A stretch of 64,000 bases of DNA from Misgurnus anguillicaudatus. Lineage: Eukaryota > Chordata > Actinopteri > Cypriniformes > Cobitidae. A program made the position numbers and the translations under genes. Positions 7,036 through 63,422 of this stretch are shown one piece after another (within the stretch, counting starts at the first letter, position 1; the number at the start of each line of letters is the position of its first letter). The stretch is taken from NCBI RefSeq assembly GCF_027580225.2, contig NC_073358.2, forward strand, positions 7,197,501 to 7,261,500. The letters run 5' to 3'. The notes below the pieces were generated by a model. The model was not told where the DNA came from, made no database searches, and worked only from the letters and a program-made list of their open reading frames with translations.

Positions 7036-7791
7036 TAGTGCTGTCTCACGATTATTCGTGACTAATCGTTTGCAGAATAAAAGTTTTTGTTTACATAATA
7101 TATGTGTGTGTACTTTGTATAATAATTATGTATAAATACACACACAGACACACATGAATTTAAAGGAGTGGTCTACCCTTTTGCCATATTGAACTGTGTT
7201 ATTGCCTCAACCTGGATGAATTAATACATACCTATCTTTTTCGGTGCGTGCACTGTGCAGCGCGTTGTGGATGTGTTGGCGTTTGGCCTAACCCCATTCA
7301 TTCCTATGGTACCAAAAAAAAGTTTTACTTTGTGGCACCATACTTACTGGTATAACTCCTCATGTAACAGTCTTTAAATAGGGAAAACACGGAAGTGTTT
7401 GGTGGCTTCCCTGTTTGGTACCATAGGAATGAATTGGTCTAGGCTAAATGCTAACACATTCACGACGCGCTGTACAGTGCACGCATTGAAAAAAGATAGA
7501 TATGTATTAATTCGTCTAAGCTGAGGTAATAACATAGTTTAATGTGGCAAAAGGGCAGACTATTCCTTTAATTAAGAAATATTTGCATGTGTATATACAT
7601 GTTTATATTTATATATAATTTATATAAATATAAATATTTATTATATTAATATTTTTTTCTTAAAATTCTACATGTATGTTTGTGTATTTATATATACATA
7701 ATTATTATACACAATACACACACATATATTATGTAAACAATAACTTTTATTCTGCAAACGATTAGTCGTGACTAATCGTGAGGCAGCACTA
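7036..7791. mobile_element. hAT-type element with perfect 8-bp target duplication, nested insertion
   Basis: Ends TAGTGCTG...CAGCACTA with long inverted arms containing ATTAGTCGTGACTAATCGT-like sequence. It is flanked on both sides by GATTTGAA (7028-7035 and 7792-7799). The centre is occupied by a TTAA-flanked foldback element at 7160-7571. Not protein-coding. Confidence 0.8.
7160..7571. mobile_element. TTAA-flanked foldback element (GCGCTGTACAGTGCACGCA family), copy 1
   Basis: Arms of about 190 bp run inward from TTAAAGGAGTGGTCTACCC and its complement. The family is recognisable by CCCATTCATTCCTATGGTACC and AAATAGGGAAAACA. Another complete copy is at 62914-63422 and a right half is at 18797-18995. 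Confidence 0.75.
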
Positions 7792-12079: not shown

Positions 12080-53880
<41,801 letters not shown>

Positions 53881-60095: not shown

Positions 60096-61007
60096 TTAAA
60101 GGAATATTCCATTTTCTTAAAAGAAAAATCCAGACAATCCACTCACCACCATGTCATCCAAAATGCCGATGCCCTTCCTTGTTCAGTCGAGAAGAAACCA
60201 CGTTTCCTGAGGAAAACATTGCAGGACTTTTCCCACTTTAATGGACTCCAACAGACACCAACAACCAACACCCAACTCAACACGTAACATGTTTTTTCAA
60301 CGGAGTTTCAAAGGACTATAAACAATCCCAAACGAGGCATAAGGGTCTTATCTAGCAAAACTTTTTGACAAGAAAAATAAAAAATATGCTCTTTTGAACC
60401 AAAGCTTTTCGTCTAGGTCCGGTCCAGCGCGACCTAACGTAAATGCGTAGTGACGTAGGGAGGTCACGTGTTACATATATAAAACGCACATTTGCGGACC
60501 ATTGTAAACAATAAACTGACACAAAGACATTAATTAGTATCAGTTGACATACAACAACGTAGGAACGGTCCTCTTTCAACACACTTGTAAACACTGGGGC
60601 GGAGTTTTGCGTCCGTCCTCTGTGACCTATTGACGTGATGACGTATTGCGTGGGGTCACCTGGCGCATAACGACCAGATCTAGACAAGAGGTTGTGCTTT
60701 AAAAGTGTATATTTGTTATTTTTCTTGTCAAAAATGACAATCGTTTTGCTAGATAAGACACTTATGCCTCGTTTGGGATTGTTTATAGTCCTTTGAAACT
60801 CCGTTGAAAAAAACTGTTACGTGTTGAGTTAAGTGTTAATTGTTGGTGTCTATTAAAGTCCACTAAAATGAGAAAAATCCTGCAATGTTTTCCTCAAAAA
60901 CATAATTTCTTCTCGACTGAACAAAGAAAGACATCAACATTTTGGATGACATGGTGGTGAGTAAATTATCTGGATTTTTCTTTTCAGAAAATGGAATATT
61001 CCTTTAA
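60096..61007. mobile_element. TTAA foldback element, GGAATATTCCATTTTC ends
   Basis: Complete copy of the 34325-35178 family. Arms are about 270 bp. The outer 205 bp of the arms differ by about 26 changes, 23 of them T (right arm, complemented) versus C (left arm); inside that, the arms match almost perfectly. Confidence 0.8.
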
Positions 61008-61052: not shown

Positions 61053-61365
61053 CACCCTACTAAAAATTTAGCTAAGACCAGCATAAGCTGGTGAGCTGAT
61101 TTGAGCTGGTCTCCCAGCTTGGTTTTTGCTGGTGTAGCAAGCTGGTCTAGTTGTGTTTTGGTCACTTTTTAAGCTGGCCTTGCTGTGTTTTGGTCCCTCT
61201 TTAAGCTGGTCTAGCTGTACTTAGCTGGACAGGCTGAAAGACCAGCTGACTTACCAGCTTGCCCAGCTTTGCCAGGCTGGAAGGACCAGCTTAGACCATT
61301 TGCTGCCACCTTAAACCAGCTACCAGCTTATGCCGGTCTTAGCCGGATCCTTCAGCAGGGTAGAC
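61053..61365. mobile_element. AGCTGG-rich foldback element, copy 2
   Basis: Arms AGACCAGCATAAGCTGG and CCAGCTTATGCCGGTCTTAG around AGCTGGTCTAGCTG-rich sequence. Confidence 0.65.
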
Positions 61366-62913: not shown

Positions 62914-63422
62914 TTAAAGGAAACACCACGTTTTTCAATATTTTACTATGTTCCCACCTCAACCTAGACAAAACAATACATCCCTATTTTTTTCAATGCG
63001 TGCACTTAATCCCCGCACAGCGCGTCGTAAACGCGTCAGCACCTAGCCTAGCCCCATTCATTCCCCAGGATCCAAACAAGGATGAACCCAGAAGCCACCA
63101 AACACCTCCATGTTTTCCCCATTTAAAGATTTCTCCACTTAAAAAAATCACCACGTTTTAGTTTGTACCACCATACTTACGCATGTAACTACTCATGTAT
63201 CAGTCTTTAAATAGGGAAAACATGGAAGTGTTTGGTGGCCTCCAAACTCATCCCCGCCTGGATCCCAAGGAATGAATGGGGCTAGGCCAAACGCCAACAC
63301 ATTCACAAGGCGCTGCACAAAGATAAAGTGCACACACCGAAACAAGATAGGTATGTATTCATTTCTCTAATCTGAGGCAAGAGCCCAGTAAAACATTGAA
63401 AAACGGTGGTGTTTACCTCTAA
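62914..63422. mobile_element. TTAA foldback element, copy 2 of the 7160 family, T-to-C rich
   Basis: Left TTAAAGGAAACACCACG, right GTGGTGTTTACCTCTAA (right TTAA mutated). Contains the family landmarks CAGTCTTTAAATAGGGAAAAC and GAATGAATGGGGCTAGG. Compared with the relative at 18797-18995, both arms show a marked excess of C in place of T. Confidence 0.75.

What the first reader, a model, noticed from the sequence alone, without database searches (positions are those of the whole stretch)
60136..60268. Dense one-direction T-to-C tract in one arm of a foldback element (60096-61007)
The left arm (60096-60300) and the complement of the right arm (60781-61007) align end to end. I count 23 sites with T in the right-arm version and C in the left, no site the other way, and only about three other differences. 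Examples: TGTTGATGTCTTTCTT vs TGCCGATGCCCTTCCT; ACTTTAATAG vs ACTCCAACAG; ATTAACACTTAAC vs ACCAACACCCAAC. The relatives at 34325 and 36508 support T as ancestral. On the minus strand this is A-to-G, the signature of ADAR hyper-editing of a dsRNA hairpin, but it is fixed in DNA. Ordinary decay would mix directions, CpG decay gives C-to-T, and GC-biased conversion would raise both A-to-G and T-to-C on one strand. Possible explanations are deamination of dA in an RNA:DNA hybrid, reinsertion of edited RNA sequence, or error-prone repair synthesis. All of these are inference.
Basis: partly seen in the sequence, partly recalled or inferred. Interest (0 to 1): 0.88.

Follow-up and report, generated by a model that had tools for sequence, protein, structure and literature searches.

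The report
ADAR-like editing scars in foldback DNA
In this animal genome (likely a fish), many copies of palindromic repeat elements carry dense stretches in which A has become G on one DNA strand only, confined to the arms that can pair and showing the neighbour preference of ADAR RNA-editing enzymes, so RNA-style editing has likely been written into chromosomal DNA.

Summary
The left arm (60135-60273) of foldback element 60096-61007 has 22 T>C and no C>T against its other arm, and T is ancestral. Four more elements in the window carry such tracts; the cleanest is one unit of a tandem array that differs from a sister unit by 13 A>G and no other substitution. In 63 two-armed genome copies (126 arms), T>C and A>G per arm are strongly over-dispersed (variance/mean 8.8 and 8.0) while C>T and G>A are Poisson-like (0.98, 1.0). 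Of copies chosen by their loop alone, 11 of 29 have a tract. Changed A's follow 5' T .55 > A .28 > C .15 > G .08, the ADAR order. Loops of edited elements stay at background (8 of 1294 A's; opposite strand 11 of 1271). Repeats outside foldbacks show no such run (0 of 186 alignments). Best reading: ADAR-type deamination of one strand of the base-paired foldback, now in DNA. The least certain step is how it got there: most likely an edited hairpin RNA was copied back; direct deamination of DNA is the main rival. Reads were not available, so an assembly artefact is unlikely but not excluded.

The parts
60096..61007 (.). Foldback element E60, TTAA at both ends (60096-60099, 61004-61007)
   Evidence: sequence, inverted repeats, arm alignment
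60135..60273 (-). Tract: 22 A>G on the minus strand (T>C on plus) in the left arm
60743..61007 (.). Right arm of E60, unedited partner and ancestral reference
60430..60670 (.). Part of the loop between the arms, used to pick and test genome copies
34325..35178 (.). Related foldback E34
35004..35156 (+). Tract in E34 right arm: 17 A>G on plus among 34 substitutions against its left arm; a smaller group of five A>G at 34539-34567
62914..63422 (.). Foldback of family B, edited on the minus strand in both arms (22 A>G in 62954-63099, 21 in 63240-63419, against B18); its right TTAA reads CTAA
7191..7285 (+). Weaker tract in the left arm of a family-B relative near 7160-7580: 13 A>G on plus against B18
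16816..17196 (+). Unit of a palindromic 381-bp tandem array (16446-18436) with 13 A>G on plus at 16833-16908 and no other substitution against unit 17578
18800..18994 (.). Family-B arm used as unedited reference (B18)
25820..26072 (.). Family-E arm used as outgroup (E26)
36508..37119 (.). Degraded family-E relative, outgroup

Best explanation
One strand of the foldback was likely deaminated at its base-paired adenosines by an ADAR-type enzyme while folded as a hairpin, likely as RNA, and the edited sequence would then have been copied back into the chromosome, leaving A-to-G tracts in the DNA. Shown: dense one-strand A>G tracts with A ancestral; absence of such runs from the non-foldback repeats examined; in family E, restriction to the arms with the loop at background; the 5' neighbour order T>A>C>G; boundaries and site subsets that differ between copies; and, in the tandem array, a tract on one unit among near-identical ones, so it is younger than their duplication. 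Inferred: that the enzyme is ADAR, that the substrate was RNA, that this happens in germ cells, and that the patch entered by reverse transcription or RNA-templated repair.
For: Polarity. Over-dispersion only of T>C and A>G (variance/mean 8.8, 8.0; C>T 0.98, G>A 1.0; arms with six or more 23, 15, 0, 0 of 126). Present in 11 of 29 two-armed copies chosen by loop identity. Context: 383 of 1415 A's in 34 tracts, 5' T 149/270, A 169/600, C 43/285, G 22/260, p=5e-16; one vote per site, 139 sites.588/.296/.160/.091, no permutation of 20,000 as extreme for T or G; five window tracts, three of them from other families, same order. Stem restriction: loop 8/1294 on the edited strand against 11/1271 on the other, arms 336/3357; family B 0/23 in the loop against 27/106 in the arms. 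Controls: 0 of 186 alignments outside foldbacks with a run of 7 or more. In situ: tandem unit. Enzyme and substrate occur together in a fish: zebrafish palindromic repeats are edited heavily (one ANGEL copy at 62 of 63 adenosines), editing levels are highest in ovary and testis, and edited sites show 5' G depletion and 3' G enrichment (PMC8096273, passages and one section).
Against: No step of copying RNA into DNA was seen. A folded RNA should be edited in both arms on one genomic strand: this holds in 12 of 16 elements with at least four net edits in each arm (p=0.077) and fails in L014, L015, L037 and L043, and twelve elements are edited in one arm only. In the tandem unit only the 5' half is edited, 13/40 against 0/40. 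E34's tract is on the template strand of the minus-strand gene around it, so the gene's own pre-mRNA was not its source, unless E34 moved later. The 3' G preference is weak: p=0.036 pooled, 0.059 by site. Some site sets recur in several copies and may be inherited. One assembly only, no reads.
Confidence: 0.5

Rival explanations
1. ADAR deaminates deoxyadenosine directly in the DNA strand of an RNA:DNA hybrid at the element, and replication fixes the change.
For: Gives the same direction and context, needs no reverse transcription, and explains one-arm tracts. ADAR1p110 edits the DNA strand of hybrids at A-C mismatches, and an ADAR catalytic domain does so in vitro (PMC7955049, passages). E34's tract is on the template strand.
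Against: A hybrid over the element would not spare the loop. Full-length ADAR1p110 did not significantly edit fully matched telomeric hybrids (PMC7955049).
Confidence: 0.25
2. A low-fidelity polymerase that puts G opposite T (pol iota is the recalled example), acting in fold-back repair synthesis, copied one arm from the other.
For: Gives pure A>G on the new strand and stem-only synthesis. One-arm events lie on the 3' arm of the edited strand in 8 of 12.
Against: Needs two events for two-arm elements, 12 of 16 of which are on one strand. No neighbour order T>A>C>G is known to me for such a polymerase. Misincorporation by pol iota was not detected in wild-type loach extracts by one assay (PMC5831811, abstract).
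Confidence: 0.1
3. Sequencing or assembly artefact at inverted repeats, such as miscalled nanopore reads, or edited RNA reads used in polishing.
For: Nanopore reads fail at inverted duplications (PMC7229812, passages). The platform and the reads are unknown to me.
Against: One of several near-identical tandem units is affected and the others are not. The errors would have to follow the 5' neighbour order, be substitutions of one direction only, and leave C>T and G>A Poisson-like. Tracts differ between copies.
Confidence: 0.08
4. Diverged subfamilies and recombination: the C version is an old lineage, or arms were converted from an edited progenitor.
For: Some site sets recur across copies, and L013-L015 share T>C sites.
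Against: Boundaries and subsets differ between copies, rare T>C and A>G changes (seen in at most two arms) are still over-dispersed (1.96 and 2.43, against 0.89 and 0.91), and the tandem unit has its tract alone. It does not explain the one-direction origin.
Confidence: 0.05
5. Selection or drift that keeps the hairpin of one transcribed strand, allowing only changes to G-U pairs.
For: The edited strand folds more stably than its complement in all five edited elements folded.
Against: It would also allow C>T on that strand, which is 1 against 22 in E60 and 0 against 13 in the tandem unit. The difference in stability follows from A>G itself.
Confidence: 0.02

Closest known systems
ADAR hyper-editing of palindromic repeat RNA (zebrafish ANGEL and others, PMC8096273; passages and one section seen)
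   Same: Direction, 5' G depletion, palindromic repeat substrate, dense clusters, found in a fish
   Different: That is RNA compared with an unchanged genome; here the change is in the DNA assembly
APOBEC DNA editing of retroelements (recalled)
   Same: Deaminase-like clusters in genomic repeats
   Different: APOBEC gives C>T/G>A; here these are Poisson-like, and the elements are foldbacks without a known RNA stage
A-to-G hypermutated proviruses attributed to ADAR (recalled)
   Same: A-to-I edits turned into DNA
   Different: Those pass through obligatory reverse transcription; here one tract lies on a single unit of a tandem array
Reverse-transcriptase model of somatic hypermutation (PMC5704389, passages)
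   Same: ADAR edits in RNA hairpins copied back into the locus
   Different: Somatic antibody genes and disputed; here a repeat family throughout a genome assembly
Repeat-induced point mutation in fungi (recalled)
   Same: Hypermutation aimed at repeats
   Different: RIP is C>T and is not limited to pairing arms
TTAA-flanked foldback MITEs such as ANGEL or Kolobok-type elements (recalled)
   Same: TTAA at both ends, long inverted arms
   Different: Family name not tested; no repeat library was available

Membership tests
ADAR-type A-to-I editing signature | A>G only, on one strand | tested here: met
ADAR-type A-to-I editing signature | 5' neighbour order U>A>C>G (order recalled) | tested here: met
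ADAR-type A-to-I editing signature | 3' G preferred | tested here: inconclusive
   p=0.024 in window tracts, 0.036 pooled, 0.059 by site
ADAR-type A-to-I editing signature | Limited to double-stranded regions | tested here: met
   loop at background; family B
ADAR-type A-to-I editing signature | Both arms of a hairpin edited on the same strand | tested here: inconclusive
   12 of 16 two-arm elements, p=0.077; 12 one-arm elements
ADAR-type A-to-I editing signature | Depends on ADAR enzyme | not testable with these tools
   needs mutants
APOBEC/AID or RIP (cytosine deamination) | C>T/G>A clusters | tested here: not met
   0 of 126 arms with six or more; variance/mean 0.98 and 1.0
GC-biased gene conversion | A>G and T>C on the same strand of a tract | tested here: not met
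   E60 tract: 22 T>C, 0 A>G on plus
TTAA-flanked foldback MITE | TTAA at both ends and long inverted arms | tested here: met
TTAA-flanked foldback MITE | Ends matching a named autonomous transposon | not tested
   no repeat library at hand

The most novel reading that the evidence does not exclude
Foldback repeats in this genome are rewritten by RNA editing: ADAR edits their hairpin transcripts in germ cells, and patches of the edited RNA are copied back into the chromosome, a heritable flow of A-to-I edits from RNA to DNA that has marked about a third of the sampled copies of a large non-retro repeat family and goes on after insertion.
Probability: 0.4. Interest if true: 0.97.

Novelty: new variant of a known kind. 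Interest (0 to 1): 0.88.

Why it matters
Deaminase hypermutation of germline DNA is known for cytosine (recalled). An adenine counterpart with ADAR rules, aimed at palindromic DNA, did not appear in the listings of six searches of open-licence papers. If real, it is a new mutational process and a direct way to test whether edited RNA can be written into a vertebrate genome. It would make repeats change fast and in one direction, and would confound both RNA-editing maps and repeat dating in genomes rich in palindromes.

Tried and rejected
CpG decay, APOBEC/AID and RIP: rejected, since T is ancestral and C>T/G>A are Poisson-like over 126 arms. GC-biased conversion: rejected for E60, where only T>C occurs on plus. 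Selection for the hairpin: disfavoured, C>T is missing. Search for contaminant copies in bacterial genome contigs: 10 loci, short chance matches only. Two viral-contig scans: nothing. Rfam at gathering thresholds: no match in the window. A protein search gave 18 homologues without names, so the host is not identified; 'fish' rests on recalled repeat types and is likely, not shown. The foldback 52341-52598 has a mild skew (G.T 14 against C.A 3, each counted twice) and was not pursued. Genome searches with family B, the tandem unit and a Tc1-like control did not complete, so families B and T rest on the window and the flanks.

Rows dropped: 16 of 79 loci without two alignable arms (at least 200 columns and 80% identity), leaving 63, of which 34 of 40 arm-selected and 29 of 39 loop-selected; 5 of 265 arm columns with under 75% majority (4). 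Context tracts needed at least six edits and at most two of the opposite type. The loop test needed at least eight edits on one strand and at most three on the other, leaving 20 elements; it covers 60430-60670 only. The repeat control left out alignments under 80 columns or over 98% identity.

Full report
What was claimed.

Check. The arms are 60096-60361 and 60743-61007, with TTAA at both ends. Between 60135 and 60273 there are 22 T>C, one inserted C, one other substitution and no C>T. Further arms in the window carry T at these sites in the majority, so it is the left arm that changed.

Other tracts in the window. In a self-comparison of the window (367 alignments, each pair seen from both sides) all 42 runs of six or more identical substitutions involve a foldback element, and all pair C with T or G with A. 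E34 (34325-35178) has 17 A>G on plus at 35004-35156, among 34 substitutions against its other arm. A foldback of another family, B (62914-63422), has 22 and 21 A>G on minus in its two arms, beside 13 and 16 other substitutions against the reference arm; as stem mismatches it has 91 C.A against 8 G.T, each counted twice. A family-B relative near 7160-7580 has a weaker tract, 13 A>G on plus beside 14 others. In a palindromic 381-bp tandem array, unit 16816 differs from unit 17578 by 13 A>G and no other substitution (two one-base indels in A or T runs), while three other units differ from 17578 by 1, 4 and 10 mixed substitutions. That tract is younger than the duplication of the units, and no transposition was needed. 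By eye, the centre of the tandem unit shares a short stretch with the centre of family B; their arms do not look alike. Most other foldbacks in the window show no skew.

Genome copies. The genome search first answered: 1.12 Gb in 61 contigs. Forty copies were listed by arm identity (of 2706 first-look candidates) and forty by loop identity (of 679). From 79 loci, the window's own copy among them, I could pair two arms in 63. Over these 126 arms T>C and A>G have variance/mean 8.8 and 8.0, C>T and G>A 0.98 and 1.0; arms with six or more number 23, 15, 0 and 0. An arm with a net of six or more is present in 28 of 63 elements: 17 of 34 chosen by arms and 11 of 29 chosen by loops. Boundaries and site subsets differ between copies, though some sets recur and may be inherited or be hotspots.

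Context. In 34 tracts 383 of 1415 A's are changed: 5' T 149/270, A 169/600, C 43/285, G 22/260 (G against the rest p=5e-16); 3' G 70/211 against 313/1204 (p=0.036). With one vote per site, 139 sites give .588.296.160.091; 3' G is then p=0.059. The five window tracts, three of them from families B and T, give T 31/57, A 47/112, C 13/43, G 4/34 (permutation p=2.5e-4 for G). ADARs are known for this 5' order (recalled); G depletion 5' and enrichment 3' in zebrafish is in PMC8096273 (passages).

Structure. In 20 strongly edited family-E elements the edited strand of the loop has 8 of 1294 A>G, no more than the opposite strand (11 of 1271), while the arms have 336 of 3357 (p=1e-38). The arms were selected for edits, so loop against opposite strand is the fairer test. 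Of the 20, 13 were chosen by arms (my sum of their rows: loop 6 of 837, arms 235 of 2300) and 7 by loop identity. Family B agrees: 0/23 in the loop, 27/106 in the arms, p=0.004. In the tandem unit 12 of 13 changed A's are predicted paired, and all 13 lie in the 5' half.

Controls. In 240 kb of window and flanks with family E masked, 186 alignments of repeats outside foldbacks have no run above 4. Of 292 foldback alignments 28 have runs of 7 to 14: 27 transitions, which trace by my reading to four elements (62914-63422, 7179-7316, the tandem unit 16816, and a family-B copy in L042 at 1802-1990), and one T>A run in L037. So the restriction to foldbacks rests on family E plus these few elements against 38 kb of control alignment.

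Strands. If one strand of a hairpin is edited, both arms should carry edits on one genomic strand. This holds in 12 of 16 elements with at least four net edits in each arm (p=0.077; exceptions L014, L015, L037, L043). Twelve elements are edited in one arm only, eight on the 3' arm and four on the 5' arm of the edited strand.

Mechanism. Direction, neighbour order and restriction to the pairing arms together point to an ADAR-type deaminase acting on a duplex (inference). Loop sparing argues against a hybrid over the whole element and against ordinary error-prone copying. Full-length ADAR1p110 did not significantly edit matched RNA:DNA hybrids but did edit A-C mismatches, in both RNA and DNA strands (PMC7955049, passages); other authors leave open whether DNA is edited in repair (PMC8448848, passages). 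I therefore put an edited RNA hairpin copied back in patches first and direct DNA deamination second. Against copy-back: E34's tract is on the template strand of the gene around it (VWD, C8, NIDO and ZP-N exons on minus), and no copying step was seen. In family B the right TTAA has become CTAA by a change of the same kind, a one-base hint that editing followed insertion.

Limits. One assembly, no reads, host unnamed. An artefact is unlikely, because one edited unit sits among near-identical neighbours and the changes follow an enzyme-like neighbour rule, but it is not excluded.

Novelty. Six searches of open-licence PMC papers listed no report of A>G tracts in the DNA of foldback elements. Only the listed part of the matches was seen (for instance 20 of 300), as titles and abstract openings; passages, a section or an abstract were read in seven papers.

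Noticed in passing
28122-51965: Minus-strand exons with ZP-N, VWD, C8 and NIDO domains: a tectorin-like gene by domain content (name recalled). E34 lies between its exons.
   Followed up: partly
63419-63422: Right TTAA of the family-B foldback reads CTAA, a T>C like those of its tract.
   Followed up: partly
52341-52598: Palindrome with a mild G.T excess in its stem (14 against 3, each counted twice).
   Followed up: no
L015, L017, L043, L049, L063: Arm positions 222, 243, 251, 252 and 256, mostly with 220, are T>C together in five copies: an inherited block or a hotspot.
   Followed up: no
61071-61343: Another short foldback (GCTAAGACCAGC ends) beside E60, not tested for tracts on its own.
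   Followed up: no
27004-27498: Minus-strand reading frame that looks like a Tc1-type transposase (by eye, not scanned); meant as a non-palindromic control, but the genome search did not complete.
   Followed up: no
L037:2700-2887: A palindrome with a run of eight T/A differences, the one non-transition run of seven or more.
   Followed up: no
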